Part shown: positions 8,038-64,000 of the stretch, one piece after another
How positions within the stretch are numbered: position 1 is the stretch's first letter
Layout: every line of letters begins with the position of its first letter
Source of the DNA: Chrysomallon squamiferum
Lineage: Eukaryota > Mollusca > Gastropoda > Neomphalida > Peltospiridae
Reading direction: 5' to 3'
Length of the DNA: 64,000 bases
NCBI GenBank assembly: GCA_012295275.1
Contig: CM022677.1
Coordinates: forward strand, 23,278,253 to 23,342,252
The notes under the pieces: generated by a model
Databases searched by the model: none
What the model was told of the DNA's origin: nothing
What the model saw: the letters and a program-made list of their open reading frames with translations, nothing else
Position numbers and translations under genes: made by a program

Positions 8038-27432
<19,395 letters not shown>

Positions 27433-36475: not shown

Positions 36476-36647
36476 GTAAGTTGCTGAAAGTAAGTGTTAT
36501 CGCCGGACGACACAACAAAATGGGTTACGTTGTTGTTTCTGTTTTAGGAAATAATTTTATTATCATTTTAATAATTTTTCTTCAGTTAACTTTTTAAAAT
36601 AGTATTTAAAACTTATGAATTATAAAATCATTTGATTTCGCTTCCAG

Positions 36648-36805
36648 ATTTCCTCCCACCCACAAACTACTGTTTTGACATATTAACGAAACTAGGAAGT
36701 GTATTGGAATTCATCAAAGACTTCAAAAGATGACCGACATGCAAAAGATTACTAGACCGATGAATGCTCTCACTTTAGGTTCACCAAATCCTTCTCCACT
36801 GACAG
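36648..36805 (+). CDS. nSTAND-ANK copy 1, exon with start codon
   Basis: The acceptor ends at 36647; ATG at 36730; donor ACAG|gtaggt. It encodes MTDMQKITRPMNALTLGSPN and five further residues. Unit 2 carries the same exon at 47864-48021 with the frame intact. Confidence 0.8.
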
Positions 36806-42800: not shown

Positions 42801-44019
42801 GGTAAAACAGTGTGATATCAATGAAAAAGGACACAAAGGACGGACTGCTTTAATCACTGCTTGTCTTGGAGGGCAGGCAGAAACTGCAGAGTTCCTCATT
42901 GAAAATGAAGCAGAGGTCAATCTTTGTGATGAATGTGACAATAATTGTTGGAACTATGCATGCAGTAGCGGTTCAGTAGATTTAGTCAAAGTGCTCCTCA
43001 AAAAAGGATTTACACTGAAAACAAGATGTCAAAATGAAAAGACTGCTTTAATGTGTGCTTGCAGAACAAATTCTTGTGAGCTTTTTGAGTTCCTTCTTGA
43101 AGCTGATAAAAAAAGTGTTGAAACATTGGATAAACATGGTTTAAACTGTCTTCATCACTGCTGCTTTTCAAAAAGTGACTCTCCAGTGTTATTAGAAAAA
43201 CTGATTGCTCTTGGGTTAGATGTTAACAGCAGAGATGACAGTTTGAAGACTCCGGCTATGTACGCTTGTAGAAATGGTCTGACAAAAATTCTTAAATGTC
43301 TTATTAAGCATAATGCCAACTTAGAACTAAAAGACAAGAATGATCAGAACTGTCTACATTTTGCTTGCTGGACTAAGAGAAGAGATATTGTACAAATTTT
43401 GATTGATCATGGGCTGAACATTAACTGCATAGACAACAATAAAACTACTCCTTTAATGGTTGCTTCATATAAAGGTAATCCAGCAGTGGCTGAGTTTCTT
43501 CTGGAGAACGGGGCTGATGTCAACAAACAAAATAGCTTTGCTCGAAACTGTGTACATGAAGCTGCAAAAGAAAGACAGATACCAGTACTTGAAGTCTTCA
43601 TCAAACATGGTGTTGACATGTACATGGAGGGCAAATATGGAAGGACACCATTCTTGTGTGCATGTCAGTACGGAAACACAGATGTTGTAGAGTTTTTTAA
43701 AAAACACGATGTTAGGGTATTGGACAGAGATAGCAATGGAGCCAATGGCCTTCACCTTTGCTGCATGGGAAAGAAAGATACTTCTTCTGTAGCTAGAAAA
43801 CTGATACACTATGGAATAAATGTCAATGATAGGGACAATAATGGAATGAGTCCAATTATGTATGCTTGTTTACATGGTAATGAGGTACTTTTTAATTTTT
43901 TATATTCAAAAGGAGCTAGCATTCATTTTCAGGATAAACACAGAAGAACATGTTTGCAGTTAGCTAGAAGAGGAGGGAACTCACGGATAGAAGCTAAGAT
44001 TAGAGAATATCTAAACTGA
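36730..44019 (+). CDS. nSTAND3-like NTPase with ankyrin repeats, copy 1 (3 coding exons, 1277 residues)
   Basis: Exons 36730-36805, 37773-37841 and 40331-44019 join in phase 1 with GT-AG borders; the total is 3834 nt including TGA. Residues 1-60 are polar and disordered. Residues about 60-300 are a P-loop NTPase: Walker A LLDAPGCGKTT (K91), Walker B NVLIFDDFFG (D135, D136), a sensor-like LKVIFTSRNYIF segment, then a helical region with VFTHPAVYDAIASIMG, as in nSTAND3 proteins. Residues about 590-1277 form about 21 ankyrin repeats. No signal peptide, membrane segment or effector domain is visible, so a cytosolic product is likely. STAND-repeat proteins commonly act as ligand-triggered oligomerising switches in immunity; that role is inferred. 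The GTG at 40372 is not the start: the reading frame extends upstream through the splice junction, and exons 1-2 are conserved in both copies. Confidence 0.9.
37773..37841 (+). CDS. nSTAND-ANK copy 1, coding exon 2
   Basis: Between tttcag and AAAA|gtaagt, 69 nt, phase 1-1, encoding RSGIASPVTVAGVEDTVASR. The frame-neutral phase means it could be skipped. Confidence 0.85.
38619..40192 (+). mobile_element. Decayed DNA transposon with inverted terminal repeats and FLYWCH/MULE-type transposase (unit 1)
   Basis: The left end (GGCATTTCCCCC, 38619-38720) and the right end (reverse complement GGCAATTCCCTC, 40120-40192) are imperfect inverted repeats of about 75-100 bases. Both carry the words CAGTCATTTCCC and GGATATTTCC. 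In between, a plus-strand relic (ATG 39188) encodes a FLYWCH-like N-terminus with two early stops. Further on it encodes a fragment resembling MULE-type transposases (DYFEDLFIGRPGHRTGE, then in another frame LWNCYDRVEAGLPRTNNNID). The central DDE region seen in unit 2 is missing. No clear target duplication was found. It sits in intron 2 of the nSTAND-ANK gene. Confidence 0.65.
39188..39840 (+). pseudogene. FLYWCH/MULE-type transposase pseudogene, unit 1
   Basis: It starts at ATG 39188 with a frame containing IVIDGYIYVKQKDLER, then TAA and TGA within the FLYWCH-like finger (GYxYxK, CxxC and HxH pattern). The LATGL segment follows, then the internal deletion, then the C-terminal IGRP to PRTNNNIDGWHQRVAA block after a frame change. 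The TGA is shared with unit 2; the TAA is private. Confidence 0.65.
40331..44019 (+). CDS. nSTAND-ANK copy 1, long exon 3
   Basis: A 3,689-nt exon after ttgtag carries the whole NTPase and all ankyrin repeats with no interruption. A single giant exon for NTPase plus repeats may reflect an old retrocopy; that origin is a guess. Confidence 0.96.
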
Positions 44020-44446
44020 CTGCTGTGTAGAGGTTTCTTCTCGTACATGTTGTGTCTTGTAACTACATGTATTTGGAAAAAGTCATTTATTAAATGCACA
44101 AAAGGTTTGCTAATAAGATGTGTTTTATTACAAATAGTGAAGACGGTCACCTGTCAAGTATGCTGATTTCTTCTTATTTAAAAGCTAAATATCAAATATT
44201 CAAGCTGCTTGCAAAATACATACCCCAAAAACATAAAAGAAGATAAAAATATCCACATATATACACATAGATATTTATACATAAATAAGCATGTAATAAG
44301 CATGTAAAATAACAGAATATGCACTGATTAACTGTTTACTGTCTGCAGATACCAGCCTTATTCAGCACAGGTTAGAATGGAAACTGCAGAGAGGCTCTGC
44401 AAATATTCTGATACTTATTAGTATTGGTACATTTCTTTATTTGTTA

Positions 44447-44448
<2 letters not shown>

Positions 44449-44488
<40 letters not shown>
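44449..44488. repeat. (GT)n microsatellite
   Basis: About 20 GT units; the corresponding unit 2 site (about 54464-54510) is a TA/GT mixture. Confidence 0.95.
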
Positions 44489-44490
<2 letters not shown>

Positions 44491-45609
44491 TTTTTATGCC
44501 ATTTCAGATGTTCTTAATTCACATACTTAATTAGAAAGATAGAAACATAATTCAATTTGTGATTGTTTACAGATGTAAATTTACTTCTATGAATATATTT
44601 TGAATGTTGTCACAGTTATGAATATTTATAATAATATGTATGATGTCTTCTGTTTTATAAATTTTTACATTTTATGGAGATATTATATACCTAATTATAA
44701 TATATTTGACATTGCATATTTTCTGACAGAAAGTTAATGTGTTTGTGACGGATAAGGTATTTATTTATTTATTTTGTAAGTTTATCTTGTTGATATCTTC
44801 CAAATTATCATATTATACTTTCTATACATTAATATACATTTTATTACTTACTTTTGGTGTTTGATAGTTGTTATTTAAAAATATATGATTTATTATTTAA
44901 TATTTGATATTTTAAACATAATTATTGCTGCCGCTGCTTCTAACTGAATTTTAATGACAATTAAATATATATATATATATATATAATTTTTATTTATTAT
45001 TCATGTTGCATGTTATTTAAAATGCTTATTAAAGACATTGATTCCTATTTCTCTTTTATTTTCTATTTAGTTATGTTACAAAAATAAAATATAATTAATC
45101 ATTTATCCCTTTTCTTCTATTCAGAAATGAATGCGTTTTTTATACGCGTATATTTACGTGATGAAATACACTTAATTATATGCTAACGATCGATCTGGAA
45201 CTGTGAATCTTTTGGTCGATAGCATTTGAAAGGCACTCGCGCGCGCGCGCACGCTCGCACACACAAACACTGGCACAATACAACATAACATATAGTTACT
45301 AAAATTAGGGCATGCAGGTTGAAAAATCTTAGACGGTTGGTTAGCATTTTCTTTGTTGCTTAACCACATAAATTTAAAATCAAAACAGAAATCGAAAGAG
45401 CAACATAAAAAGAAATTAAACAAAACAAAACGAACAAATAAATAAACAACAACAGCTAACGAACGTAGAGGTACGAAATGCAACTATTTCTGACATTTTT
45501 GCAGACAGATGTCTTTCTCTTCTGTCCAGTCAAACGCATTGTTTGCTGATATATTGCAACTTGCTCTGAATGCGAGACTACGGAAGCCCATTTCCGCCAT
45601 TAGTAAAAC

Positions 45610-45760
45610 AAGTGTTTATTACGTTATTAAGAGATAATATTTTACAGCGTGTTATTATAACTAGACAATTTTTGCGTTACTGCGAGATATTGCATTATTA
45701 AGAGATAACCACTGCGTTATTTTTGAGAAAACATTGCATTATTACGAGATAACGTTTTAG
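45610..45760. repeat. Degenerate GCGTTATTACGAGATA repeats, unit 1
   Basis: Seven or so diverged copies of a 16-20-base word (TTATTAAGAGATAA, TTACTGCGAGATA, TTATTACGAGATAA). The same array is kept at about 55565-55705 in unit 2, near the end of each duplication unit. Confidence 0.8.
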
Positions 45761-47156
45761 GCTTAATTGCTACATGTTTTACGGACATGACGATTGTTGC
45801 TTATGGATATGGATTTCCACATAATGAAAAATCTGAAATCAATAAATGTTTAGCTATGCATCTATAGACTAATTTTTATTTTCCTTTACTTTTTCTCTTG
45901 TGATTTGTTGTGAGAATTTTCTTGACACTTTTTCACATTCATTTGATTGTAATTTATTTATTTATTTATTTTGTTTGTTCATTCCCTTTAGTTCTTTTTT
46001 TTTCTTTATATAAATTCTTTATTTTTTTCTTTATTAATCTATTTTAATGCTTTTATGATGTGTATACAGCTTCTCTGACTATAACTAATTGAAATACCAA
46101 AATGATAATAATAATAATGGCATACCCATAAATGATAATATTCAAGTGATATCTAAAATTAAATGTGTACTTGTTGAGTAAATTTCATCTTGAAATCGTT
46201 TTATAACAGAGATCCAATAACTCTAGATATATCATAATAATCATCTGAGTCTATTGGGTAACTGCTCTTAAATTTTTTGTTTTCCTCTTCTTGATGCCAT
46301 TCATTTCTACGCAACAATAAACACATTATAAACAGTTTCTGCTAAATTCAGCTAAAGAAGTTATGAAGTACAGAAAACAAGTGGCCAGGTATGATGATGC
46401 TTTAATGGAATGGACAATGGAAGAGCTCAGAGCTACTGTAAACAATCTGAAGATGTGAAAGACATCTTTGATACGATTTAGAATATCTGCAGCTGAGCAT
46501 GATGGAACTGATGGCTCTAATTAATTAACTGCTATAATGGGTGAAATTTGCAAGAATCTGTTTTATAATAAATACCTGTCAGATAAAGATGTGTTTATAA
46601 TATTTTAAAATGTTATTTAGGTGTTTTTCACAATTATAATAACTGTTCCAAAATGTACTAGTCTTAACATAACAGCGACATCTAACAGTTTCAATAGTAA
46701 TCAACATTATTTTAGATGAAACGTTTCACTGATGATATACTTGTCATAACTAAATTGGAGAAAAAAAACAAAGAATGTGCTTCACGTTCATCCCAATGAG
46801 AAACCTTGAACTTCGCAACAACATTGACCATGTGATGTAGTTAAAAAAACAACAACAAAAAAAACAACAAAAAAATAAATATTAACATAAAATAAAATAA
46901 AATAAAATAAATAGTAACTAAATAAGTAAATAAATAATAAAAAATGCAATGAAGATAACAGAAAATAAACTTAATTTAAAAATAATCCTTTATTTAAACA
47001 GTTCATGAAAATAATGAAAGACCGTTGATAAAGCAGCTCTAGTATCGTTTTCAACGGGAAGTAAGCAAACGGAATGTCAGAAGCGTTTAACCTGACAAAC
47101 GGCCTTAGATAAATAAATGAAAGATAAACCAACAGTTACTGGCTAAGCTTCGAAAA

Positions 47157-47289
<133 letters not shown>

Positions 47290-47619
47290 GTTTCAAATTG
47301 ATTAAATTCGGGGAAGTTTAATAGTGGCGGATAGGTTTGGGTACGAATTACTGTTAGACATCAAATTATTTGCTCTTGATTTTGTTTGTTTTCTTGAAAC
47401 TAGGAAGTACAAAATCTTTTTAAGTTAATGACATCTCTTCATAAGGTAATACTAAAAATTAATATATTTATTGTGTAACACGGTTAAGAAGTCATAGCCA
47501 ATATTGTGTTAAGAAGACGATCGATTTCGAACAATAACTGAGGTTATTGAAGTTATTTTATAAATTTATTTATCTAGTTTAAAATAAATGTTTTCAGTTT
47601 ATATTTGCACTTTGGGTGA

Positions 47620-47695
47620 TAGAGAGACAGAAACAAGTATCTAATTACTGGGTTTATACATGATGTCGCGATTTTAATTTATAAGGTAAGTTGCT
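47620..47695 (+). other. Possible 5' non-coding exon of nSTAND-ANK copy 2
   Basis: Same strong donor (ATAAG|gtaagt) and upstream sequence as unit 1. The start is unknown. Confidence 0.4.
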
Positions 47696-47863
47696 GAAAG
47701 TAAGTGTTATCGCCGGACGACACAACAAAATGGGTTACGTTGTCGTTTCTCAGTTTTAGGAAATAATTTTATTGTTATTTTAATATTAATTTTTCTTCAG
47801 TTTATTTTTTAAAATAGTTTTTATATTTAAAACTTATGAATTATAATTTGATTTCGCTTCCAG

Positions 47864-48021
47864 ATTTCCTCCCACCCACAAACTATTGTTTTGACATATT
47901 AACGAAACTAGGAAGTGTATTGGAATTCATCAAAGACTTCAAAAGATGACCGACATGCAAAAGATTACTGGACCGATGAATGCTCTCACTTTAGGTTCAC
48001 CAATTCCTTCTCCACTGTCTG
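47864..48021 (+). CDS. nSTAND-ANK copy 2, exon with start codon
   Basis: ATG at 47946, donor G|gtatgt. It differs from copy 1 by three replacements (R to G, N to I, T to S) and no silent change that I could see. Confidence 0.8.
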
Positions 48022-48347
48022 GTATGTTTATTTGGGTTTTAGTTTGCTGAACTAGGAGATTTATTTATTTATTTACTTATTTATTTTCAAATAGTTCTAA
48101 ATTTGAAATAACTATATAGGCCTACAAATGAAGGCTAATGAAAAAAGGTAATGAATAATTTTTTTTTAGTAAAAAACAACAGTGAAATAAATATGTAAAA
48201 ATCTACAACCGTCAATGTATATTCCTAATTCCAAAAATCTGAAAACTTTTTGATCCCACAAATATTAGTAAGAGATCCTCATCATATTTCGCACTTTGGA
48301 CACTTCTTGACAGTTCTTCTAGTTGTGGAACAATATTTCTTGTAAAG

Positions 48348-48378
<31 letters not shown>

Positions 48379-51300
48379 AAAAATTAACCATGGTAATTAA
48401 ACACAATCACAGCTTGCAATTAACATATATATATATAGCTTAACAAAATAATAAATATCATTTAGCAAAATAATATATTATACTTTAACAAATAATATTT
48501 TAATCATTAAGTAAAATATCAACATATTTTAAAAATAGATTTTATAATGTAGATAATAAGATGTAGTCTTTTCCTATAATTATTATTATTTTTTAATTAT
48601 CATTATTATTGTGATTGTAATATTATTTATCTTACTTATAATATTATTACTGGAGCTGTTGATAAACAGTTACTAAAAATTGAAATAACATAATATATGA
48701 ATTGACGAAATTTCGGAATGTTACAAAAACAACACTGCAAATTGCAATAATGATTTAAAATATTTATTAAAATTATAATTCTTGTTTCAGTTCGGTCAGG
48801 CATTGCATCACCTGTGACTGTTGCTGGAGTAGAAGACACTGTGGCTTCACGTGAGAAAAGTAAGTTGAAGTTATAAATACACAGTGTAGTTTTTATCAAT
48901 AGATGTGTGCAAATCTAAGAAAACGTCACTTGTGTCAATATACATGTGTCTGTAGTGCTCTGTGTTTTAGTATATGTCAGAAAATAAGTTTGTGTTCTTT
49001 TGTGTTAGGGTTAATGTGAATGTTTGCTGTTTGGCTCTGTGTTAATGTTGATGTGTTTGTGAGTTAGGCTTGCTGTATTTGTGGGTATGTGCATGTGTAT
49101 TTTCAGATATGTGTGATTTTGTGTCTGATCTCTGTGCTTACTATATGTGTAAGTGTTTCTGTCTACCTCTGTGATGTATGTGTGTGTGCAAATTAATTTC
49201 ATCTGTAGGTACATAATTAATTTATAAAAAGAAAAGAAAAAAAAAAGAACAAAAAGAAACCAAAAAACCAATACAATCCCTGCACAAAAAAACAACAACA
49301 AGGAGGTAATATCTTAGTACGAGTCATAACTTTCAAAACAAACCATGGCTTCTGTTACTTCTACACGTGACAAAAATAAGATAGTTATAGATGGCTACAT
49401 TTATGTGAAGCAGAAGGATCTCGAACGAGATGTGGTGTCGTACGAGTGTCAAATATGTAGATGAGGAAAGGTTAATAGTGGACAGTGTAAGGTTAAGGTC
49501 AATGGAGAAGCAGTGGGCAGACTGAATGAACCTACTCATGCGCCAGTTGTCGGCAGATCTCAAGCAATACAAGCTTGGGCAACTATGAAACGCCCCGCAT
49601 TGGATACCATGGAAACACCACAGCAGATCCTTGCCACTGGCTTGCAGCAAATCACAATTAATAACTCCATTCAGAACCATGAGAAGGGCAAACAACACCT
49701 CAACCGTGACACAGTTCTCGTCCATTTCTAAACGGGAGCAATCATGTTCCCAGATGTTAATGTTCACGGATGCCTCTATCATCTAGCCCACTATGTCTGT
49801 CGTCGGATGCAGACTTCAGGATTACAGCAGCGCTATCATAACGCTAATCATGGATTATTTCCAGGTTTCGTTCATTGGGCGTCCAGGTCATCGAACAGGC
49901 GAGGTCCCACATTTCCACACTCCCTGTGGAACTGTTATGATCGTGTTGAAGCTGGTCTACCTCGAACCAATAACAACATTGATGGGTGGCATCAACGCGT
50001 GGCTGCTTGTGTCAGCTGTTATCATCCAAACATCTGAATATTTCTGGACATTTTGAAGAAGGAACACTCACCTAACAGAATGACTAGATCCTAGCAGGAG
50101 AAGGTCCACCCTCTCAGCGACAGGTATACAGAGATATCGGGCAACGCCTACAAACACTAGTCAGGGACTACCAGAACAGACCCCGTCTCAATTTCCTGCG
50201 TGGTGTGGCACACAATCTCTAAATGTAAATTTATTATAAACTCATTCAACAGAATTTGCATTTCATTGTTTCATTTACGTTTTCATAATAAAAGATATAA
50301 TAAACGGGGTAAACATCGGAGAGGGAATTGCCCTGCAACTGGTTTTTTTTAAACCTTTCACTTACACCACTACAGACATATGTGGTTTTGTATCTCTGTT
50401 TCTCTGCATTGTGTTTATGTAACTTTCTTATTTATGATATTAATTTTTTTTATTTGTTAAATTGTAGGTCATCTCAACAATAGGATTACTGAAGCCCACA
50501 GTCTGTTTGTGGAAACAAAAGCTTTCAGACATGCTAGAGATGCTCTGGCTGATGTTCAACACTTGATTCTTCTAGATGCGCCAGGCTGTGGCAAAACAAC
50601 CATCTCCCTGATGCTGATGAGAAAATACATTAAAAAAAAATATCGTTATTATTTTATTGATTCCAACGATGATTTTAATGTTATACATGACATTAATACT
50701 CGTGATAAAAATGTGTTGATTTTTGATGACTTTTTTGGAAAAAGTGGTTTAAAAGATTTTGTAAAATTGTCCAAAACTCTACAAGATTTGGACAGTATTA
50801 GTAGTAAACTGAATAATTTGAAACATGATGAGGATTCGCAGCATGATTTAAAAGTGATTTTCACTTCAAGAAACTACATTTTCGCAATGGCAAAACCACA
50901 GCTTGGACAGTACAAACGTACAATTATGAAAAATTCAAACGTAATTAACTTGTCTGAGTATCCACTTACAGAGACGGAAAGAAAACAAATGTTATTAAAG
51001 CACTGCCAGTCTGTAAATATTGAAATGAGTGAAGAAAAATTAGGAGACATTGTAAAGAAAACAGAAAACACGATAGGCTTTCCCTACAGTTGTAAAATGT
51101 TTTCAAAAGTAAACGTTTTCCAGAAAATGCCTGAGTCATATTTTTCAACGCCATTCATCTATCTTAAAGATCATTTGGCAGAGATTTTATTGAAAGGGAC
51201 AGTGCCTGGTCAAGCGTCTGCTTTGGTATTAATGTTTCTACTGGAAGGAAAACTCATGATCAGAGATCTTGATCCCCGGACACGAAAGGAACCAAAAGTT

Positions 51301-54156
51301 GAAGAATATATGAACTGTTTATATGCTGATATGACTAAGGAGCCACATGAAATAACTCAAGGTGCCAGGTCTTTGGAAGGTTCATTTTTAGAAAGAGACA
51401 ACCAGACGTATGTGTTTACTCATCCAGCAGTCTATGATGCTATAGCTTCTATCATGGGTGAAAGAGATCCCAATTTGATCCTTAAACATTGTCAGATGTC
51501 ATTCATCCTAGAATATGTTCATCTAGAGACGAACAAGTCAGGGATGAACAAAACAGATGATTATGAGTGTTCAGTTACCATACCCGAAGTACATACAGCA
51601 ATGATGGTAAAACGTTTTGCTGATGAAATAAAGGAACGTAATTTCAGAGAGACTTTACCACATGAGGTCTTCGAGGAAGAAACATTTGTTGATGATGTCA
51701 TTGAAGAATTGGAAAGTGATGACAGTTTGCCTGATATATTTCACAAGTGTGACAGAACACATGGACACTGTTTTTTATTTTGGGCCACACTTTACTCGAC
51801 ACCACAAATTGTGAAAACATCACAAGAAACTAATTTTGTTAAACATTTTTTGGTGCAGAAAGCCTGTGAACGTTCTGAGTTTAATAACAGCGAACTGCTG
51901 GCTGGATTTCTTGGCTGTGCCTTAAGTGGGAACATGAAATCATTTGAAAGAATCATTGAAAATAAGAATAAATCTTCTAACTTAGAGAACGATAATGTGG
52001 CATCAGCAACAGTGGAAGAAATAATAAAAGGAAATTTGTTAAGATCACTTTCAGAGGAAAATGAACAAAATTCACAGTTTGCATTCTTTGGCAACCAGAG
52101 AGATGGCCTACTTCATGTTGCCTGCATTCATGGTTATGCAGACATTGTAAAAGAGTTTCTGAAATTAGGGTGTATTGTGAACGGTCGGGGAGAGCTTGGC
52201 CGAACACCCTTAATGTACGCCAGCAGATATGGACATGAGGATGTTGTAAACATTTTACTAGACTTCCATGCTGATATTAACCTTACAGATGACGAAGGAG
52301 CAAGTGCACTTCACCTTGCTGCGCGTGGTGGTCACATCAGTGTGATGAAAATGTTCACTGATCATGGAGTTGATATCAATGAGAGAGGAGAGCACCAGAG
52401 AACACCACTGTTGTATGCCTGCAGATATGGATACTATGAGTTTGTAAAGTTTTGTCTTGACAATGGAGGTGACCTCAGCTTGAAATGCGATTATGATTCT
52501 TGTTTACATCTGGCTTGTATTTCTGGTAGACTTGATACAGTGAAACTTCTGGTGGAGAAGGGAATGGATGTTAATGAACGAGGAACGTTTTCTCGTAGCC
52601 CTGTTATGTATGCAATCCGACATGGAAATATTGAAATTGTTGAGTATTTGAAAGAACATGGAGCAGATTTAAATATTGCTGACGACAGAGGGGAAACTGC
52701 ATTTTCTCTTGCAGTAGTTAGTGGAAACGTTGAACTGGCAAAACAGTTCCTTCCATTTGTTGAAGATCTAGTGAATGTATGTGACAAGGAAGGGACTACT
52801 CCTTTTGAAAAAGCCAGTGCATTGGGTCACACTGACATGATAAAATATTTCATGGACAACAACAGGGAAGTCCTTCCTTTATCTCGTTGGCTTATTTCTG
52901 CATCTTACAAGGGTAGAATGGATATCATCAAACTGTTGGTAAAACAGTGTGATATCAATGAAAAAGGTCACAAAGGACGGACTGCTTTAATCACTGCTTG
53001 TCTTGGAGGGCAGGCAGAAACTGCAGAGTTCCTCATTTCACATGGAGCAGAGGTCAATCTTTGTGATGAATGTGACAATAATTGTTGGAACTATGCATGC
53101 AATAGCGGTTCAGTAGATTTAGTCAAAATGCTGCTCAAAAAAGGATTTACACTGAAAACAAGAAGTCAAAATGAAATTACTGCTTTAATGTGTGCGTGCA
53201 GAAAAAATTCTTGTGAGCTTTTTGAGTTCCTTCTTGAAGCTGATAAAAAAAGTGTTGAAACATTGGATAAACATGGTTTAAACTGTCTTCATCACTGCTG
53301 CTTTTCAAAAAGTGATTGTCCAGTGTTATTAGAAAAACTGATTGCTCTTGGGTTAGATGTTAACAGCAGAGATGACAGTTTGAAGACTCCGGCTATGTAC
53401 GCTTGTAGAAATGGTCTGACAAAAATTCTTAAATGTCTTATTAAGCATAATGCCAACTTAAAACTAAAAGACAAGAAAGATCAGAACTGTCTACATTTTG
53501 CTTGCTGGACTAAGAGAACAGATATTGTACAAATTTTGATTGATCATGGGCTGAACATTAACTGCATAGACAACAATAAAACTACTCCTTTAATGGTTGC
53601 TTCATATAAAGGTAATCCAGCAGTGGCTGAGTTTCTTCTGGAGCAGGGGGCTGATGTCAACAAACAAAATAGCTTTGCTCGAAACTGTGTACACGAAGCT
53701 GCAAAAGGAAGACAGATACCAGTACTTGAAGTCTTCATCAAACATGGTGTTGACATGTACATAGAGGGCAGATATGGAAGGACACCATTCTTGTGTGCAT
53801 GTCAGCAGGGAAACACAGATGTTGTAGAGTTTTTTAAAAAACAGGATGTTAGAATATTGGACAGAGATAGCAATGGAGCCAATGGCCTTCACCTTTGCTG
53901 CATGGGAAAGAAAGATAATTCTTCTGTAGCTAGAAAACTGATACACTATGGAATAAATGTCAATGATAGGGACAATAATGGAATGAGTCCAATTATGTAT
54001 GCTTGTTTACATGGTAATGAAGTACTTTTTAATTTTTTATATTCAAAAGGAGCTAGCATTCATTTTCAGGATAAACGCAGAAGAACATGTTTGGAGTTAG
54101 CTAGAAGTGGAGGGAACTCACGGATAGAAGCTAAGATTAGAGAATATCTAAACTGA
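47946..54156 (+). CDS. nSTAND3-like NTPase with ankyrin repeats, copy 2 (3 coding exons, 1277 residues)
   Basis: Exons 47946-48021, 48791-48859 and 50468-54156, of lengths identical to copy 1 (76, 69 and 3689 nt), join in phase 1 and stay open to TGA. The Walker A lysine and Walker B DD are unchanged, as is the number of ankyrin repeats. Against copy 1, I count by eye about 50 amino-acid differences in the last exon and about 19 silent ones. The replacements are densest in the ankyrin half, and several codons carry two or three changes (for example E-N-E to S-H-G at 53038-53046). Both genes therefore look functional but diverging in the presumed ligand-binding surface. Role and regulation are as inferred for copy 1. 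Confidence 0.9.
48791..48859 (+). CDS. nSTAND-ANK copy 2, coding exon 2
   Basis: 69 nt, phase 1-1, with one silent difference from copy 1. Confidence 0.85.
49305..50332 (+). mobile_element. Decayed FLYWCH/MULE-type transposon, unit 2
   Basis: Unit 2 counterpart of the element at 38619-40192. The left terminal repeat is deleted and the right one is reduced to about 20 bases (ending GGGAATTGCC at 50332). More of the transposase is kept than in unit 1. Confidence 0.6.
49345..50090 (+). pseudogene. FLYWCH/MULE-type transposase pseudogene, unit 2
   Basis: From ATG 49345, FLYWCH-like KIVIDGYIYVKQKDLER then YECQICR, with TGA at 49462-49464. After this stop the frame continues in the same finger with NEPTHAPVV (the HxH-type end) and LATGLQQI. 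After a frame change, MFPDVNVHGCLYHLAHYVCR (49744 on) matches the FP...GC.FH motif of MULE-type DDE transposases. The block then ends in PRTNNNIDGWHQRVAACVS. Several frame breaks make it non-functional. Confidence 0.65.
50468..54156 (+). CDS. nSTAND-ANK copy 2, long exon 3
   Basis: 3,689 nt with no indels against copy 1. The first codon across the junction is Ser rather than Arg. Confidence 0.96.
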
Positions 54157-54476
54157 CTGGTGTGTAGAGGTTTCTTCTCGTACATGTTGTTGTTCGTAAC
54201 AGCTAATATTCAAGCTGCTTGCAAAATACATACAGAAAAATCAAAAAAGAAGATAAAAATATCCACATATACACACATACATATTTATACATAAAATACA
54301 CTGTGTAATAAGCATGTAAAATAACAGAATATGCAGTGATTAACTGTTTACTCTCTGCAGATACCAGCTTTATTCAGCACAGGTTAGAATGGAAAATGCA
54401 GAGAGGCTCTGCAAATATTCTGATACTGATTAGTCATTGATATTGGTACATTTCTTTATTTGTATATGTATGTATG

Positions 54477-54510
<34 letters not shown>

Positions 54511-55779
54511 GTTTTTATGCCATTTCAGATGTTCTTAATTCACATACTTAATTAGAAAGATAGAAACATAATTCAGTTTGTGATTGTTTACAGATGTAAA
54601 TTTACTTCTATGAATATATTTTGAATATTGTCACTGTTATGAATATTTACAATAATATGTATGATGTCTTCTGTTTTATAAATTTTTACATTTTATGGAG
54701 ATATTATATACCTAATTATAATTTATATTTGACATTGCATATTTTCTGACAGAAAGTTAATGTGTTTGTGACGGATAAGGTATTTATTTAGAAACTATGT
54801 GAGATAGTATATACCAAATTATTGTTTGATAGTTGTTATTTAAAAATATATGGTTTATTATTTAATATTTGATATTTTTATCATAATTATTGCTGCTGCT
54901 GCTCCTAACTGAATTTTAATGACAATTAAATATATATATTTAAATTAATTTTACTGGAGATGTTTCTAATTTATATTATTTTTATTTATTATTCATGCTG
55001 CATCTTATTTAAAATGCTTATTAAAGACATTAATTCCCTATTTTTCTTTTCTTTTCTATTTAGTTATGTTATAAAAATAAAATATAATTAATCATTTATC
55101 CATTTTCTTCTATTCAGAAATGAATGCGTTTTTTATACACCTGTGTTTATATGTTGAACTATACATAATTACGTGCTAACGACCGATCTCGAACTGTGAA
55201 TCTTTTGGTCGATAGCATTTGAAAGGCACTCGCGCACGCTCTCACACAGTTCAACATAACATACAGTTACTAAAAGGAGGTTGCAAATCTTAGACCCTTT
55301 TCTTTGTTGCTTAACCACATAAATTTAAAATCAAGACAGAAATCGAAAGAACAATAACATAAAAAGATATTAAACAAAACAAAACGAACAAATAAATAAT
55401 AACAGCTAATGAACGTAGATGTACGAAATGCAACTATTTCTGCGTTTTTTGCAGACAGATGTCTTTCTAATCTGTCCAGTCGGACGCATTGTTTGCTGAT
55501 ATATTGCAACTTGCTCTGAACACGAGGCAACGGAAGCACATTTCTGCCATTAGTAAAACAAGTGTTTATTACGTTATTAAGAGATAATATTTTACAGCGT
55601 GTTAATATAACTAGACAATTATTGCGTTATTGCGAGATATTGCATTATTAAGAGATAACCACTGCGTTATTTTTTAGAAAACATTGCATTATTACGAGAT
55701 CACGTTTTAGGCTTTATTACTACATGTTTGTCGGGCATGACGATTGCTGCTTATGGATATGGCTTTCCGCATAATGAAA
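54157..55779 (+). other. Downstream flank of nSTAND-ANK copy 2
   Basis: Aligns with 44020-45790. It contains TA/GT tracts at about 54464-54510, a candidate AATAAA near 55076, and the degenerate GAGATA repeats at about 55565-55705. Confidence 0.6.
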
Positions 55780-57203: not shown

Positions 57204-57249
57204 ATGACGATTCTACTGTGGCTTGTTTTTATTCTGGGATTTTTTATAG
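57204..57249 (+). CDS. Signal-peptide exon of the microexon gene
   Basis: ATG 57204 then ILLWLVFILGFFI, a hydrophobic core without a charged residue; donor ATAG|gtaacg, phase 1. The following exons are all compatible with this phase. Confidence 0.65.
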
Positions 57250-57433
57250 GTAACGTTGTACTATTATTACTGTTAGTTATTAGAAATATATATATAGAGG
57301 GCTTATTAATAGGATTAAAAATATATAAAATTTTGTATGAAGACAAAATTCTACTTTTTAAAGTTGCAAAATGATTGATAACATTCCAAAGGAATTTCCA
57401 ACACTGATCTGAGTGTTTTTGCAAAAGGCAAGT

Positions 57434-57472
<39 letters not shown>

Positions 57473-57601
57473 TATAATTAATATATTTTTGAATGGAAGA
57501 GAACATTTACAAATATCCCTATTCAGTATTAAAAATTGAGAGTAAACACTTTTACTGCTGTTTTCATTTTTTACATTATTATTTTTTTTCATTTTGTTGC
57601 C

Positions 57602-57653
<52 letters not shown>

Positions 57654-58186
57654 GTTCTTGCATCATCATCAAAATCTGTTTTCTTTTAGCTGAACCATTG
57701 GATTCAGGATCAGGTAAAAACACATACATAAAATAAAAATATTGTTTTGATTTTTCTATCATTATGAGTGATGACACTGCATAATACCTGTACAGGGTAA
57801 TGGCTATCTTAATGCTTATGAACTGCTTTTGTTTTGAATGTTTATTGTTAGCAAAGAAAAGTATTTACAATTATAATTACTGAGGATAGCTGTTTATGTA
57901 TTGTAAATTAAAATCATTTTTTAAAAATGAAAAAAAAAAAAGAAGAAAAAAGAAGAAACAAAAATTAGAATTACCATGAAAATATACTCTCAGGTGGAAG
58001 AAAACAAAATGATAGTTACTGTATTGTATATATAACTGTCACTTTCACAGAAAAATCTTAATATTTTATTTATCTTCCTGACCAGTACTGTTACTGTGAT
58101 AGTTGGCAGAATAAATTTGACATTATTTTATTGTCTTGCAGATTATGACAGTAATGACAATGAAAGAGGTAGGTTCACACTGTACA

Positions 58187-58221
<35 letters not shown>

Positions 58222-61068
58222 CTGTGTTAGGTTTTCAGCAATAATATAACATGATAAAAAAATGGTCATACTGCTTTTATTAAATATACATTTATATATT
58301 ACTTTTTTATTTCATTTTAGATATATATTTATAATAATCTGTTTTTAGGAGATTAATAGTCTTTTAAAGGGTCTTCACATTAAATTATTTTATTTTCATC
58401 TATTTCTTGTTCTTATTATTCTCCTTCTTCTTATTATTATTGTTATCATCATATTATTATTATTATGTTATTCTATTATTACTACTACTAATGTTGTCAA
58501 TAATAAATATAATTATTAGTATTATAATTTGTTGTTATTCTTTTTATTATTGCTGCAGATGTTTTTTCTTTTCCTTATTTTCACTGAAACTGTTAATTAT
58601 GTATATCCATTTCTTTTGAAACTGTGGTACTTTGTGCAATGAACATAAAATTATTTTATTTTATTTTTAGACCATCAAACTAATGAATTTGAATTGTACA
58701 TGAATAATTATAATTGTACATATATGTGTGTGTGTGTGTGTGTGTGTGTCTGTCTGCCTAAGAAATGCACATACAAATGTACTTGAACATCAAAAGCTAT
58801 ATAATCCAAAAAAATACTAATTAAATGTCAAAATTTAAGAATCTTTTAGTACATTTTGCATTATTTATTATACATTATATACATCTATGTCTATATATAT
58901 ATTTATATATGCATATTTTTCCATCAAAACTCCCAGTATTTTCTCCTGCCTTCAGAAAGGTGAATGTGGAAAAGCTTTTTGCTGCTAATAGAAAAGCATT
59001 CATATTATTTACTTGAATAAAATTAAAGAAATAAATAGCTGGTTTTAATGAAATAGTATAATCAAAGCTGAATCTTGTTTGTGGCCCATTAGGCTAAAAT
59101 AAGATTGATGAGTGGTCAATGAGAGTGACCTAACTTTGATTTAAAAACTGTTGTTTGTTATTACATAGATGTTGTTAAGAATGATTGTTATTGTTGATAT
59201 TTATATACTTTTTTTTTACTTATTAAATGCATTTAAAATTTCAGTTGAACCATCTGAATCAGGAGCAGGTAAAACTAATTTAAAACATTTATTTATTTAT
59301 TTATTTATTTATTTATTTGTTTATTTTTATTTGCTTTAGGCAATTTTACTTATCTAAAAGATTTAGCCTGTAATCTTACTGCTTAGTGTTTGATGCATTT
59401 TCATCTAGAAAAAGGTTATTCCATATAAAGTGCATGAAATACCATTCTTGCTAATATATGTTCTTTATTATATACATATTCTAAAGGTTCTTATAAATAA
59501 ATTAATATAATTAACATGTCTTCCCAAATAAATGGAAATAAAATACATTGTAATGAAGGATCAAAAATTATTTATTAATTTATTCTGTTTTCAGGTCCAC
59601 CTATCATTACAGGTGAATATATATATATATATATATTTTTTTTTTATATATATATTTTTTATATATTTTATATATGCAGCATACAGACACACACAGACAC
59701 CCAGACACACACAGACACACACACACACACACACACAAAAACACACATCTTACTACACACCAGAGGCAGCACTGTTTTATTTTGTTTATTAATTTATTGA
59801 AAAACAGATTCACAGAAAATGTTTTTAACATTTATCTGTTTCTTCTTCTTATTATTGATACTAATCATAATATTCATCATCATAATCGTCATAATGATTA
59901 TTATGATTATTTTACAATTTTATTAACATTATTAATATTACTGTTGTCTTTATTATCACAATTCTTCTTAAAATTTTGTTATTATTATTACTATTAGTAT
60001 TGTTATTATCTACTTGCTGTTAAAATCTTATATTATATTAATTATCACTGCAAATAATCTTCTTATTTTTTATAGATGAAGAAATCCCCAGTGAAAAAGG
60101 TATCTTCAAAAAAACAATGACCCCCCCAAAACATCTTAAATAAATAAACAAACCAAAACTACCTAAAAAACCACATAAGAATTATCTTTAGGCATTAGTT
60201 GGTTTAAACCTGTATTTATGTAATTTTATTATCAGAAAAGGTTCTACATTATTGTACTATATTGTAATATTATTCACTATTATTACAGTATTTTATATTT
60301 AGCAGATCACTTTTTGATACAGTTATTACAGACTATATTGTACAGTGAACAAACAGCTGTTTAATACATAGGCAGGCCAAAATATCTGCATTCTTGTTTT
60401 GTTTGTTAATTTATTTATATAAAAAAACTAAAACTAAAATAAATTATTGTCAAAAAATAAACAATAAAAAAAATTAAAAAATACATAATAAATAAATAAA
60501 ATAAAATGAAATAAAATAAGAAAAATAATTTAAAAAATGAAATAATAGATTTGATAAAGGGTCTTCATATTAAATTATTTTCTTTTCATCTATTTCTTGT
60601 TTATATTATTCTCCTTATTATTATTGTTATCATCTTCATCATCATCATATTATTATTATTATTATTATTATGTTATTCTATTATTACTACTACTAATGTT
60701 GTCAATAATAAATATAATTATTAGTATTATAATTTGTTGTTACTATTCTTTTTATTATTGGTGCATATGTTTTTCTTTTCCTTATTTTTACAGAAAATGT
60801 TTATAGTGAAACAGGTATTGTGTTTTAATCTTACATAAAGAAACAAATAAACAATTATAATTTGTACAATCAGAACAATTTTAAATGTGGCCTTGCTGTG
60901 TGGTGAGAAATAACAGAAGGAAAACGCATGTACTAGACAGTATTGTACATTTAATAAAACACTTTTTAGTACTAAACTGTGAGAAATAAAATTAGGAACA
61001 AACCACTATACAGCATGTACATTTAATATAACAGATTTTGATATTATTTTTAGGTCTATACACTGTAC

Positions 61069-61105
<37 letters not shown>

Positions 61106-62244
61106 TGAAATAAAATTAGGTCAAAACAGTACATTTAATAGAACAGATTTTAATACGATTATTATATGTCTATGCTGTACAGTTATTATTATTATTATTC
61201 CCATCATGTGAAATGGAAATTAGGCCAAACACTACAGCATGTATATTTAATAAAATAGATTTTGAAATGATTATTATAGTTATTATTATTATTAGTGGTA
61301 GTAGTAGTAATATTTTATAGTCTTATTAGAATTAGTATTAGTATTAATATTATTTTCTGGTTTGTATTATCACTGCAAATGATTTTCTTTTCTTATTTTT
61401 AGCAGATGAAACCTCCACTGAAACAGGTATTCTGTTTTATATTAAATAAACAAACAAGAATAATTAATCAGTTTAGTTAGTACTTGATTTACAACTAGTT
61501 TCTATTCATAAAGCTGCATTTATCTAAATTTAGAACTATTTTGAACACTATCAATGCTTTAAATCCTACACTTTCCAGTGAAAAATAACAATAGGAACAA
61601 ACTACTTTACAATACAGCACTGTATTTTTATTTGATTATTATAGTCTATTCCATGCTGTTGTTATTATTGTTCTGTTAGTATTAATATTATTATGTGGTT
61701 GCTATTAGAATCTGTATTATCACTGCAAATGTTTTTTCTTTTACAGAAGAAAGCTCTGCTGAGACAGGTATTCTGTTTTATCTTAAGAAAAAAATAGAAA
61801 CACAAAAACAAAAAACAAAGAAAGAAACAAAAGAATTAATCTGTTCAGATAGTACTGGATTAACCAATGGTTTTCGTTCTTGTAGCTGCATGTACACACA
61901 TTTGTACACTTAGAACAACTTTGAATACACTGTCAATGCTTTAATGCAGCCTACACTACAGAGAGAATTACAATTATGAACAAAGTATTGTATATTGAAT
62001 AGAATGGAGATTTAATACGATTATTATACGATAGAACAGGTCTGATATAGGTTATAATATACTATTTCCTTGCACATTGCAATTAATTCTTGATTATCTT
62101 TTTAATCTTGAATTTTAGATGTTGACGAATGTTTGACTGGCCAACATTACTGTAATCCAGTGGAAGAGGAGTGTAAAAACACAATTGGCTCATTTAAATG
62201 TGTTTGTAAGTCAGGATATATAAAAGTCATGGGCAACTGCTTTG
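57204..62244 (+). CDS. Secreted or membrane EGF protein built from phase-1 microexons (5' part; gene continues)
   Basis: Inferred exons: 57204-57249, 57690-57713, 58142-58168, 59245-59268, 59595-59612, 60076-60099, 60794-60814, 61406-61426, 61747-61767 and 62119-62244. All junctions are GT-AG and phase 1. The first exon encodes a likely signal peptide (MTILLWLVFILGFFIG). The eight microexons (18-27 nt) each add 6-9 residues, mostly acidic with Ser, Thr and Pro. The last exon is a calcium-binding EGF domain: DVDEC, six cysteines, NTIGSFKC and CVCKSGY. Its donor (gtgagt at 62245) shows that more exons follow. A secreted or surface location with an extended, possibly O-glycosylated stalk is inferred. 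Each microexon alone is weak evidence; the matching phases, similar flanks and Ser/Glu/Thr content support the set. I do not recognise the family. Confidence 0.65.
57432..57469. repeat. (TA)n microsatellite
   Basis: About 19 TA units in the first intron of the microexon gene. Confidence 0.95.
57607..57653. repeat. (TTA)n microsatellite
   Basis: About 15 TTA units shortly upstream of the first microexon. Confidence 0.95.
57690..57713 (+). CDS. Microexon 1 (24 nt)
   Basis: ttttag|...|gtaaaa, phase 1-1, adds AEPLDSGS. It resembles microexon 3 including its donor. Confidence 0.6.
58142..58168 (+). CDS. Microexon 2 (27 nt)
   Basis: ttgcag|...|gtaggt, phase 1-1, adds DYDSNDNER. A GT repeat follows in the intron. 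Confidence 0.6.
58188..58219. repeat. (GT)n microsatellite
   Basis: About 15 GT units just after microexon 2; another lies at about 58724-58748. Confidence 0.95.
58365..58592 (+). pseudogene. Duplicated intron block with a decayed 'ghost' microexon
   Basis: This block matches about 60553-60820 almost base for base through GGGTCTTCA, the ATT-rich part and CTAATGTTGTCAATAATAAA. In the 60.8 kb copy it ends in acceptor ttacag, a 21-nt exon and donor gtattg. Here the acceptor and 5' part of the exon are gone, and only CACTGAAAC followed by tgttaatt remains, with the donor GT lost. Confidence 0.65.
59245..59268 (+). CDS. Microexon 3 (24 nt)
   Basis: tttcag|...|gtaaaa, phase 1-1, adds VEPSESGA. 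Its pattern (xEPxxSGx) matches microexon 1 residue for residue, suggesting duplication. Confidence 0.6.
59595..59612 (+). CDS. Microexon 4 (18 nt)
   Basis: ttttcag|...|gtgaat, phase 1-1, adds GPPIIT. It is the shortest and least acidic of the set, and is followed by a TA tract and then a CA tract. Weakest call of the series. Confidence 0.4.
59618..59740. repeat. (TA)n, T-rich and (CA)n compound repeat
   Basis: TA and T tracts at about 59618-59675, then CA-rich sequence to about 59740. The frames across it are repeat-derived. Confidence 0.93.
60076..60099 (+). CDS. Microexon 5 (24 nt)
   Basis: ttatag|...|gtatct, phase 1-1, adds DEEIPSEK. Upstream intron words (ATTATCACTGCAAAT) are shared with microexons 7 and 8. 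Confidence 0.6.
60794..60814 (+). CDS. Microexon 6 (21 nt)
   Basis: ttacag|...|gtattg, phase 1-1, adds ENVYSET. It is the intact counterpart of the ghost exon at about 58580. Confidence 0.65.
60905..61330. repeat. About 110-bp tandem intron repeat
   Basis: About four diverged copies, each with a GAAATAAAATTAGG-like word, an ACAGCATGTACATTTAATA-like word, AGATTTTGATA-like sequence and a TTA tract. A more distant copy lies at about 61575-61650. Similar words after microexons 6 and 7 imply spread together with the exons. Confidence 0.75.
61406..61426 (+). CDS. Microexon 7 (21 or 24 nt, NAGNAG acceptor)
   Basis: Acceptor ttttagcag; donor |gtattc. Using the second AG adds DETSTET; using the first AG (exon from 61403) adds ADETSTET. 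Both keep phase 1-1. Confidence 0.65.
61747..61767 (+). CDS. Microexon 8 (21 nt)
   Basis: tttacag|...|gtattc, phase 1-1, adds EESSAET. The donor flank GTATTCTGTTTTAT is identical to that of microexon 7. Confidence 0.65.
62119..62244 (+). CDS. Calcium-binding EGF exon
   Basis: Acceptor ttttag, donor |gtgagt, 126 nt, phase 1-1. It encodes DVDECLTGQHYCNPVEEECK, then NTIGSFKCVCKSGYIKVMGN, CF. The D-x-D/N-E-C start, six Cys and N-T-x-G-S-F are the cbEGF consensus. One domain per phase-1 exon is the usual layout. Confidence 0.93.
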
Positions 62245-64000
62245 GTGAGTTTATCATGCTACATATTTGTTGTTAATGTAAATGTAACACACAGATTAAA
62301 ATATATTAAAACCCTTTTTGTTATTTTAAGATACAGATTAATGTTGTGGTAATATTTAACTAGTCAGTCCTGAAAGTTTGGGTTCTTTAGTCCTTGTGGT
62401 CCAGATGGTGTAGCCTTTTCAGAATCTGTACCAAGTGTCTGAGACACTCCTGGATGCAGCTTGCGTATCTTCTCAAGGACTAGCCCCAGAGTTTGCTGTA
62501 AGTTCTGTCTTCAAGTCTCTATTTGAATGAGGGTTGTCTTCATAGACATGATCTTTCAGCTAGCCCAGTAGAAATCTCAGGGCTTAAAATCAGGTGGGGC
62601 TCATTTAGGGTCACCTACTGATCAGTCAGTCTGCCATTTGTTGCTGCAGCTGCATGTCAGTGTTTGGTTTGAAGAGTCCAAGGTAGCACCACCCTGCTGA
62701 AACCACTGCTCATTATGAGTTATGCCTGCACATCTCCCTGCTGTATTCAATCCTCTGGTTGTGTAGTGCTGCTGACATGGCCTAACAGAAGAAAATGAGG
62801 CTCAGCAGAGAATCATCAAGAAAGTCGGGGTCTTAATACTTTTTTTTCAATACAACATCAACACATGACAATTATTTTGACCAATTCAGCTTCTGTTTAA
62901 TCTTTGTTTTGTAATGGAACAACTTAACATCCATGATCAGAATCCACCTCACTGGTTCACTGGGAATGTGTAGCTGCACCTTTGGCTGGACTTCTTAGGG
63001 CTGCAACCAACAGCATCCTGGACAGCACCAACATTACCTGCCACTCTCACATTCAAACGTCGTCCATTTTTGACCCTTCACGTTTAGAGGTCAGGCTTTG
63101 AACAGCTCCCTTTTCTCTAAACTTACTGACCTATCTGCAAAATCTTGCTTTTGTACAGATAATGATTAAAATGGAAATGCCTTCAAAATTTTGCCTGTAC
63201 AGATTTAAACAACTTGGTTTCAAAACATGAGTGCATGCAAGACCTTTTCTGTTCAGTTTCCATGGCATTCTCACAAAACAAAATTATTGATGAATCTTTT
63301 TGTTATCATGTCCTTTAGAAGAATCTGCATAATAAGAACAACAGCATTATTATTCATCGTTTCATCTGCTGTAGTATGGGTTGCAACCATTTTGGGTCTT
63401 TTAAACCTATTTAATCAAGTGTGTTTGGATACTATTGTTTAAAATATTCTGTAAGTTGTATTTTTTTCTGCTTAATTAAAATTAATTTATAATGTAAAGG
63501 GTGGGCTTGATGTCTTATTGTTAATTTTATTGTATTATCATTATGATTCAAAAGTATTATTATTTTTAATTTTATTTCATGAGGTGCTTGCCTACTAAGA
63601 TAACTTAATTGTGAATCTTTATTCAAATCATGTCAGCATTTAAACAGTTATAAAATAATATTTTCTCAGTCATTTTATTTCAATAAAACAAAACGTTCAG
63701 TATCCCCAATTTAAGAACCACTAGAAGATGTTTGGACCCTTAGAACATTTTCAAATTACATTTCTTTTAATTTTTTTTGTTGAATAAATTATTGTAAATC
63801 TGAATTTAAATCCTGATTCAATAATTTTAATAAAGTTTGAATCTTCATTTAGAGAGATCTCAGTTTCTGCATTAAAGTTTAGTAGAAAAAGGCTAGTTTC
63901 ATTCTTACTTACCTAAATATTTGTAAATCTTGTATTGTAGAATGCTCACATTTTTATTTATCCAATTATTTATAAATCTAGACTTAGAAAGATAATTCTT
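62245..64000 (+). other. Intron after the cbEGF exon, open at the window end
   Basis: No further exon recognised. It contains the mariner relic and a plus-strand 71-codon frame at 63227-63442 with a hydrophobic segment, without splice or family support. Confidence 0.6.
62360..63110 (-). pseudogene. Decayed mariner-type (IS630/Tc1/mariner) transposase relic
   Basis: This segment is less AT-rich than its flanks. On the minus strand, the 5' part reads NVGAVQDAVGCSPKKSSQRC, like the helix-turn-helix part of mariner transposases. Further on, WFQQGGATLDSSNQTLT corresponds to the WFQQDGA catalytic block, with the Asp changed to Gly. After that come PPDFKP and DFYWAS in the place of SPDLNPxDFxLWG, then KIRKLHPGVSQTLGT. 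Many stops and frame changes make it dead. No terminal repeats were identified. Confidence 0.7.

What the first reader, a model, noticed from the sequence alone, without database searches (positions are those of the whole stretch)
57204..62244. Secreted EGF protein assembled from a string of 18-27 nt, phase-1 microexons
A signal-peptide exon is followed by eight symmetric microexons, each adding 6-9 mostly Ser/Glu/Thr residues, then a cbEGF exon. Any subset can be skipped without a frame change, so one gene could make a large set of stalk lengths and sequences. This layout recalls the micro-exon genes known in schistosomes, but here it is linked to EGF domains.
Basis: partly seen in the sequence, partly recalled or inferred. 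Interest (0 to 1): 0.8.

Follow-up and report, generated by a model that had tools for sequence, protein, structure and literature searches.

The report
String of in-frame microexons before EGF
A snail-like animal gene appears to build an acidic, flexible stretch of an exported EGF protein from eight tiny exons that arose by repeated copying and can all be skipped without breaking the reading frame, a layout best known from blood flukes; no transcript was available to show that skipping really happens.

Summary
A 46-nt signal-peptide-like exon (57204-57249), eight 18-27 nt exons and a complete calcium-binding EGF exon (62119-62244) have GT/AG introns, and all internal exons are class 1-1. A splice-site scan, with thresholds set after seeing the exons, finds exactly these eight on the plus strand and none on the minus; 0 of 500 shuffles reach eight, mean 0.56. 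A looser scan shows a much weaker excess. Every exon before EGF ends in G, so all 256 in-silico subsets stay open. Exons 5-8 share flanking intron, exons 1 and 3 are copies, and two dead copies remain near 58590 and 58671: the linker grew by birth and death of intron-plus-exon units. It is acidic and Ser/Thr-rich. The gene runs past the window end, no transcripts were available, and the own-genome search did not complete, so combinatorial splicing is possible but unshown. The host looks like a gastropod. In layout it works like a schistosome micro-exon gene; membership is not supported, and microexons joined to a folded domain already have a precedent (SmVAL6). Verdict: a real MEG-like architecture in a new gene context.

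The parts
57204..57249 (+). first coding exon, signal-peptide-like MTILLWLVFILGFFI + 1 base, donor gtaacg
   Evidence: donor 6.6 bits; hydrophobic core read by eye, no predictor run
57690..57713 (+). microexon 1, 24 nt, AEPLDSGS (A spans the junction)
   Evidence: 15.3 bits; 19 of 24 nt identical to microexon 3
58142..58168 (+). microexon 2, 27 nt, DYDSNDNER
   Evidence: 20.3 bits
58355..58597 (+). dead copy of the intron upstream of microexon 6 and of the first bases of that exon (exon copy from about 58587); the acceptor AG is not kept
   Evidence: 86% over 262 aligned positions
58671..58715 (+). dead or very weak copy of microexon 2: acceptor AG kept (3.7 bits), the two donors tried score -1.2 bits; 45-nt open phase-1 frame if the second were used
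   Evidence: 66% over 183 aligned positions
59245..59268 (+). microexon 3, 24 nt, VEPSESGA
   Evidence: acceptor only 0.5 bits; weakest sum, 7.4 bits
59595..59612 (+). microexon 4, 18 nt, GPPIIT
   Evidence: 19.6 bits
60076..60099 (+). microexon 5, 24 nt, DEEIPSEK
   Evidence: 11.5 bits
60794..60814 (+). microexon 6, 21 nt, ENVYSET
   Evidence: 14.6 bits
61406..61426 (+). microexon 7, 21 nt, DETSTET; NAGNAG acceptor also allows 24 nt (ADETSTET)
   Evidence: 13.2 bits
61747..61767 (+). microexon 8, 21 nt, EESSAET
   Evidence: 15.5 bits
62119..62244 (+). calcium-binding EGF exon, 126 nt, class 1-1, six cysteines
   Evidence: Pfam EGF_CA 4.6e-14; acceptor only 0.4 bits by the recalled matrix, donor 9.3

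Best explanation
This is the 5' end of a gastropod-type gene for an exported protein: signal peptide, then an acidic Ser/Thr/Glu-rich, probably disordered linker, then a calcium-binding EGF domain, with more exons beyond 64000. The linker is cut into eight tiny class 1-1 exons. It grew by repeated duplication of units of intron plus microexon inside simple-repeat-rich introns, and some copies died by losing a splice site. Because all units are class 1-1 and end in G, each gain, loss or skip is neutral for the frame, so the linker's length and sequence can drift between signal peptide and EGF. Shown: the exons as sequence features, their phases, the shared ancestry of most of them, the dead copies. 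Inferred: that the exons are spliced in, that the linker is a flexible stalk or spacer that may be O-glycosylated, and that some exons are skipped.
For: Exons and phases. Excess over chance: 8 against a shuffle mean of 0.56, 0 of 500; minus strand 0; length mod 3 of 8:0:1. Duplication: microexons 7-8 over 384 positions, E 4e-32; 6-7 over 223, E 1e-25; 6-8 over 195, E 4e-16; 5-7 over 187, E 3e-15, all spanning the exons; dead copy against the microexon-6 region 86% over 262; dead copy of microexon 2, 66% over 183; overlapping families from another tool; microexons 1 and 3, 19 of 24. Among copies 6-8 the near flanks are more alike (upstream 76-83%, downstream 70-90%) than the exons (57-76%). Linker composition of 20 D/E, 2 K/R and 16 S/T in 59 residues. 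EGF_CA domain.
Against: No transcript or protein evidence. The splice matrix is a recalled metazoan consensus, not trained on this species, and gives the EGF exon's own acceptor only 0.4 bits; its tight thresholds were set after seeing the exons, and a looser scan shows a much weaker excess (16 on plus against a whole-window mean of 12.5). The introns are rich in ATT/TTA repeats, which inflate alignment scores between copies even with masking; matches of microexon 1's flank to units 5, 7 and 8 look like such cases. The conserved-flank pattern is not general: in the three pairs with microexon 5 the downstream near flank is only 40-46% identical, below the exons (58-71%), and in the pair 1-3 the exon (19 of 24) is more alike than the 80 bases upstream (45 of 66). 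Microexon 4 has no clear copy. The protein searches found no relative that carries the linker, so conservation across species is untested.
Confidence: 0.72

Rival explanations
1. Constitutive short exons: all eight are always included, and the many tiny exons are simply the by-product of duplicating a small unit. No isoform diversity results.
For: 6 of 8 microexons reach a sum of 13 bits (scores). The duplication history explains the layout without any splicing purpose.
Against: Site strengths are uneven (7.4 to 20.3 bits), and microexon 7 has a NAGNAG acceptor. Neither is decisive.
Confidence: 0.5
2. Combinatorial splicing: the array makes many linker variants from one gene (up to 256 subsets), tuning the length or exposed face of a surface or secreted EGF protein.
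For: All internal exons class 1-1, all donors end in G, 256 of 256 subsets open. Same layout as schistosome MEGs, for which skipped variants were sequenced (passage of PMC4015677). Among units 6-8 the exons differ more than their near flanks, mostly by nonsynonymous changes.
Against: No transcripts. Microexon 1 seems needed for a good signal-peptidase site (inference). Divergence of this kind also fits a neutral linker, and pairs with microexon 5 and the pair 1-3 do not follow the pattern.
Confidence: 0.3
3. The chain is not used: the true transcript joins the signal peptide to EGF with few or none of the small exons, and the candidates are decaying or chance sites.
For: Two copies look dead. 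Candidates of similar strength occur elsewhere in the window (17 in 59.1 kb of plus strand, 15 on minus), and the loose scan shows only a weak excess.
Against: Eight in-frame exons, none on the minus strand, 0 of 500 shuffles in the tight scan; lengths 8:0:1 mod 3. The fully skipped form FFI-DVDEC would lack a small residue at -1 (inference).
Confidence: 0.08
4. The linker copies are under diversifying selection, as a recognition or immune surface would be.
For: 12 nonsynonymous against 3 synonymous codon changes, summed over the three overlapping pairs of microexons 6-8.
Against: Seven codons per exon, non-independent pairs, no population data. Near flanks hold splice signals and are a biased yardstick; the far upstream flanks (53-56%) are no better conserved than the exons.
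Confidence: 0.1

Closest known systems
Schistosome micro-exon genes (MEGs)
   Same: Signal-peptide exon followed by many very short symmetric exons with much longer introns between them, skippable without frame change; a micro-exon duplication inside a gene is also reported there (MEG-3; passage of PMC8293314).
   Different: Here the small exons are 18-27 nt and all class 1-1; a folded EGF domain follows; microexons make 180 of 352 known coding nt, 51%; the host looks like a mollusc. The MEG-3 duplication was ascribed to a transposon; here the copies sit in simple-repeat introns, and I made no transposon search of them.
SmVAL6 (venom-allergen-like gene with a MEG-like portion, S. mansoni)
   Same: A folded-domain gene joined to a run of very small symmetric exons (passages of PMC4015677, and PMC4350168).
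   Different: CAP-type instead of EGF; 38 exons; explained there as recombination of a VAL gene with a MEG, while here the array seems to have grown in place.
Proteins with calcium-binding EGF domains (NELL2 and ADGRE5/CD97 as nearest solved structures)
   Same: One complete EGF_CA domain beginning DVDEC; best two of 22 solved sequences are NELL2 and ADGRE5.
   Different: These matches are generic to the domain; the three hits cover 26-36% of the query and carry EGF domains.
Other genes with many short in-frame exons in flexible regions (tropoelastin, titin PEVK, CD45 stalk; recalled, not looked up)
   Same: Small symmetric exons code for a flexible or glycosylated stretch whose length can vary by splicing.
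   Different: Exons there are mostly longer, and the proteins are unrelated (recalled).

Membership tests
[quoted passage not shown]
   hydrophobic 15-residue start read from the sequence; no predictor available
Schistosome MEG family | very short symmetric exons (6-36 bp in PMC5825161; 6-81 bp in PMC10526429) | tested here: met
   eight exons of 18-27 nt, all class 1-1
Schistosome MEG family | most of the coding region made of such exons (about 80% in PMC5825161; up to 75% in PMC4015677) | tested here: inconclusive
   180 of 352 known coding nt, 51%; the 3' part of the gene lies beyond the window
Schistosome MEG family | product variants by exon skipping | not testable with these tools
   no transcripts; only the open frame of all 256 subsets was shown
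Schistosome MEG family | sequence relation to a known MEG, platyhelminth host | tested here: not met
   no MEG among the 3 hits (weak test: the search needs shared five-letter words); the neighbour gene's best named hit is a gastropod, Gigantopelta aegis, 53%
Calcium-binding EGF domain (EGF_CA, PF07645) | curated Pfam cut-off and six cysteines | tested here: met
   52.8 bits against a cut-off of 27, profile positions 1-43 of 43; six Cys
Genes grown by intragenic exon duplication | related exons with related flanking introns | tested here: met
   for microexons 5-8 and 1/3 and two dead copies; microexon 4 has no clear copy

The most novel reading that the evidence does not exclude
A mollusc evolved, independently of flukes, a micro-exon array of the MEG kind in front of an EGF ligand or receptor, and uses it combinatorially so that one gene makes up to hundreds of linker variants, with the exon set itself turning over quickly (eight live, two dead copies). 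If this is common in the genome, micro-exon variation is a convergent way to diversify exported proteins, found also in the phylum that hosts flukes.
Probability: 0.15. Interest if true: 0.8.

Novelty: new variant of a known kind. Interest (0 to 1): 0.5.

Why it matters
A review says that MEGs seem restricted to schistosomes (passage of PMC8293314), and a research paper that they appear restricted to platyhelminths (passage of PMC4350168). Another review says that micro-exon genes have been found in other organisms, with S. mansoni unusual in their share of the coding sequence (passage of PMC4015677), so the restriction is not absolute in print. A clear array in a gastropod-like genome, with its duplication history readable and dead copies in place, would show that the layout can arise by ordinary intragenic duplication of class 1-1 units, without parasitism. 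It also gives a concrete case for testing whether such arrays serve diversity or are a neutral outcome of a frame-safe design.

Tried and rejected
Own-genome search for further copies and for the 3' end of the gene: not completed. Relatives of the spliced N-terminus in 5.77 billion proteins: 2 hits among 5 candidates and 1 hit among 34, covering 26-36% of the query and carrying EGF Pfam domains (sequences); I saw no residue alignments of them. Next exon in 62245-64000: the phase-1 scan with acceptor at least 3 and donor above 4 bits gave no convincing exon; a 30-nt candidate at 62626-62655 was set aside because it codes VSLPFVAAAA, unlike the others, in a stretch that I suspect is a decayed transposon (no Pfam hit for four pieces). 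Other EGF or signal-peptide copies in the window: nothing convincing; best other hits E 0.91 for the EGF protein and E 8e-4 over 23 nt for the first-exon DNA. Rfam: no match at gathering scores. Far flanks as a neutral yardstick were given little weight: 53-56% upstream for units 6-8, but 65-71% in local alignments.

Literature: ten searches. The five that paired micro-exon words with mollusc or gastropod words (11, 18, 39, 42, 52) showed no paper on micro-exon genes in molluscs among the rows listed, but one search found only 1 paper and the others listed 20 of 194, 25 of 5,854, 15 of 113 and 15 of 768; one search found none. The library lacks most subscription journals. Opened: PMC10526429 (abstract and introduction) and passages of PMC5825161, PMC8293314, PMC4015677 and PMC4350168. 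The founding MEG paper (DeMarco 2010) is not held and was not read. The other listed papers were seen only as listings.
Full report
WHAT WAS CHECKED. The span 57204-62244 was read directly and all ten exons were located with their borders. The first exon is 46 nt and encodes MTILLWLVFILGFFI plus one base. Eight exons of 24, 27, 24, 18, 24, 21, 21 and 21 nt follow, then a 126-nt EGF exon. The nine introns are 320 to 1076 nt and all run GT..AG. The spliced reading is 117 residues: signal-like start, AEPLDSGS-DYDSNDNER-VEPSESGA-GPPIIT-DEEIPSEK-ENVYSET-DETSTET-EESSAET, then DVDECLTGQHYCNPVEEECKNTIGSFKCVCKSGYIKVMGNCF.

IS IT MORE THAN CHANCE? A generic splice matrix (recalled consensus, not trained on this species) was run over the span. 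With 15-30 nt, donor at least 5 bits, sum at least 7 bits and an open phase-1 frame, the plus strand gives exactly the eight named exons and the minus strand none; in 500 dinucleotide shuffles the mean is 0.56, the maximum 5, and none reaches eight. The thresholds were set after the exons had been scored. At sums of 11 and 13 bits, 7 and 6 of the eight remain. With the frame ignored, candidate lengths in the span fall 8:0:3 over the remainders mod 3 (one of the three nested in microexon 2) and 8:0:1 (18-27 nt, simple repeats left out), against 27:26:18 in the other 59.1 kb of the plus strand.

AGAINST THE CHANCE TEST. The first, looser scan (9-45 nt, no donor minimum, nested candidates counted) gave 16 candidates at 8 bits on plus and 6 on minus, while the whole window averages 12.5 and 8.8 per equal length; the contrast grows with the threshold (at 12 bits, 7 and 0 against 3.6 and 1.8). 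The rest of the window holds 17 phase-1-open 3n candidates on plus and 15 on minus at the lowest tight threshold, and sliding windows elsewhere reach 5 (top rows only shown). Windows that extend past 62118 reach 9 because of candidates at 62215-62244, inside the EGF exon, and at 62626-62655. The matrix gives the EGF exon's own acceptor 0.4 bits and that of microexon 3 0.5 bits, so low scores do not exclude real sites.

FRAME CLOSURE. Every exon from the first to microexon 8 ends in G, so every junction codon is GNN whatever is skipped. All 256 subsets are free of stops, 57 to 117 residues long. Microexon 7 has a second acceptor three bases upstream (NAGNAG). One limit on 'any subset': microexon 1 supplies the Ala that would sit at -1 of the likely signal-peptidase site; other first partners put Asp, Val, Gly or Glu there, of which only Gly is usual (inference, recalled rule).

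HOW IT AROSE. The repeat finder and blastn of each exon with 250-nt flanks show that most units are related. Microexons 7 and 8 match over 384 positions (E 4e-32), 6 and 7 over 223 (E 1e-25), 6 and 8 over 195 (E 4e-16), and 5 and 7 over 187 (E 3e-15), all spanning the exons. The intron before the EGF exon resembles the intron before microexon 8 (66% over 161). Microexons 1 and 3 share 19 of 24 bases. Two copies look dead. One, 58355-58597, copies the intron before microexon 6 and the first bases of that exon (86% over 262) and has lost the acceptor AG. The other, at 58671, copies microexon 2 (66% over 183), keeps an acceptor AG, and scores -1.2 bits at the two donors tried. A profile of units 5-8 also finds the first dead copy (E 0.00035); the next hit elsewhere has E 0.074. 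Microexon 4 has no clear copy. The introns hold many ATT/TTA, GT and AT repeats, which may promote such duplication (inference) and which inflate alignment scores.

WHAT IS KEPT. Among units 6, 7 and 8 the 45 bases upstream (76-83%) and 20 bases downstream (70-90%) are more alike than the exons (57-76%). In another alignment of 80 bases upstream and 25 downstream, exon identity was lower than flank identity in 3 of 3 pairs (Fisher p 0.02, 0.07 and 0.05; pairs not independent). The pattern is not general. In the three pairs with microexon 5, exons are 58-71%, near upstream 64-82%, near downstream only 40-46%. In the pair 1-3 the exon is 19 of 24, upstream 45 of 66, downstream 14 of 17. Codon changes within 6-8 are 5, 3 and 4 nonsynonymous against 0, 2 and 1 synonymous. 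The simplest reading is that splice signals, frame and a hydrophilic acidic character are kept while exact residues are free. Diversifying selection is possible but not shown.

WHAT THE PROTEIN LOOKS LIKE. The linker has 20 D/E, 2 K/R and 16 S/T in 59 residues, so it is very likely disordered (inference). The EGF exon is a complete EGF_CA domain (52.8 bits against a cut-off of 27) with six cysteines. Its best two of 22 solved sequences are NELL2 and ADGRE5, a generic match. No convincing next exon was found up to 64000, so whether the product is free or anchored is open.

HOST AND RELATIVES. The neighbouring nSTAND3-ankyrin gene has 53% identity over 99% of its length to a Gigantopelta aegis protein and 51% over 99% to an unnamed one; of the 54 hits the next by score has 27% over 56%. 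The genome is therefore probably that of a gastropod mollusc (inference). Searches with the spliced N-terminus found three unnamed EGF proteins. The length filter and the five-letter word seeding limit this search, so absence of orthologues is weak evidence. The own-genome search did not answer in 11 tries (listed in Tried and rejected).

COMPARISON. MEGs of schistosomes are described as about 80% short symmetric exons of 6-36 bp (passage of PMC5825161), and as seemingly restricted to schistosomes or platyhelminths (passages of PMC8293314; PMC4350168), though another review says that micro-exon genes have been found in other organisms (passage of PMC4015677). Up to seven skipped variants were sequenced in families 1-3 (same passage). 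The present gene shares the layout and the frame logic. No sequence relation was found, its known part has 51% microexon content, and skipping is untested. A folded-domain gene joined to such exons is known in SmVAL6. I therefore file it as a new variant of a known kind: it works like a MEG in layout and is not shown to be one.

CONFIDENCE. That the eight exons are real parts of one gene that arose largely by unit duplication: 0.72. That they are used combinatorially: about 0.3. That this amounts to a convergent, genome-wide system: not testable here.

Noticed in passing
34440-45829 and 45828-55779: Tandem segmental duplication of about 10-11 kb (82-97% identity in pieces), each copy with an open nSTAND3-ankyrin frame of 1231 aa, stop to stop (40324-44019 and 50461-54156); the stretch holding that frame is 97.4% identical in DNA.
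   Followed up: partly
39406-40053 and 49465-50056: Broken open frames upstream of each nSTAND3-ankyrin copy; one (49732-50037) holds RTNNNIDGWHQR, which recalls MULE transposases (from memory). Four pieces gave no Pfam match above cut-off.
   Followed up: partly
62350-63150: Minus-strand open frames (such as WFQQGGATLDSSNQT) recall a decayed DNA-transposon transposase in the intron after the EGF exon (from memory); four pieces gave no Pfam match.
   Followed up: partly
19418-19756: Exon with the first part of a nuclear-receptor zinc finger (zf-C4, 8.3e-10), which recalls ROR/HR3 (from memory).
   Followed up: no
23299-24416 and 14025-14829: Two long minisatellites (units of about 39-44 nt and 43 nt); the first has repeat-translation open frames of up to 343 aa on the minus strand.
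   Followed up: no
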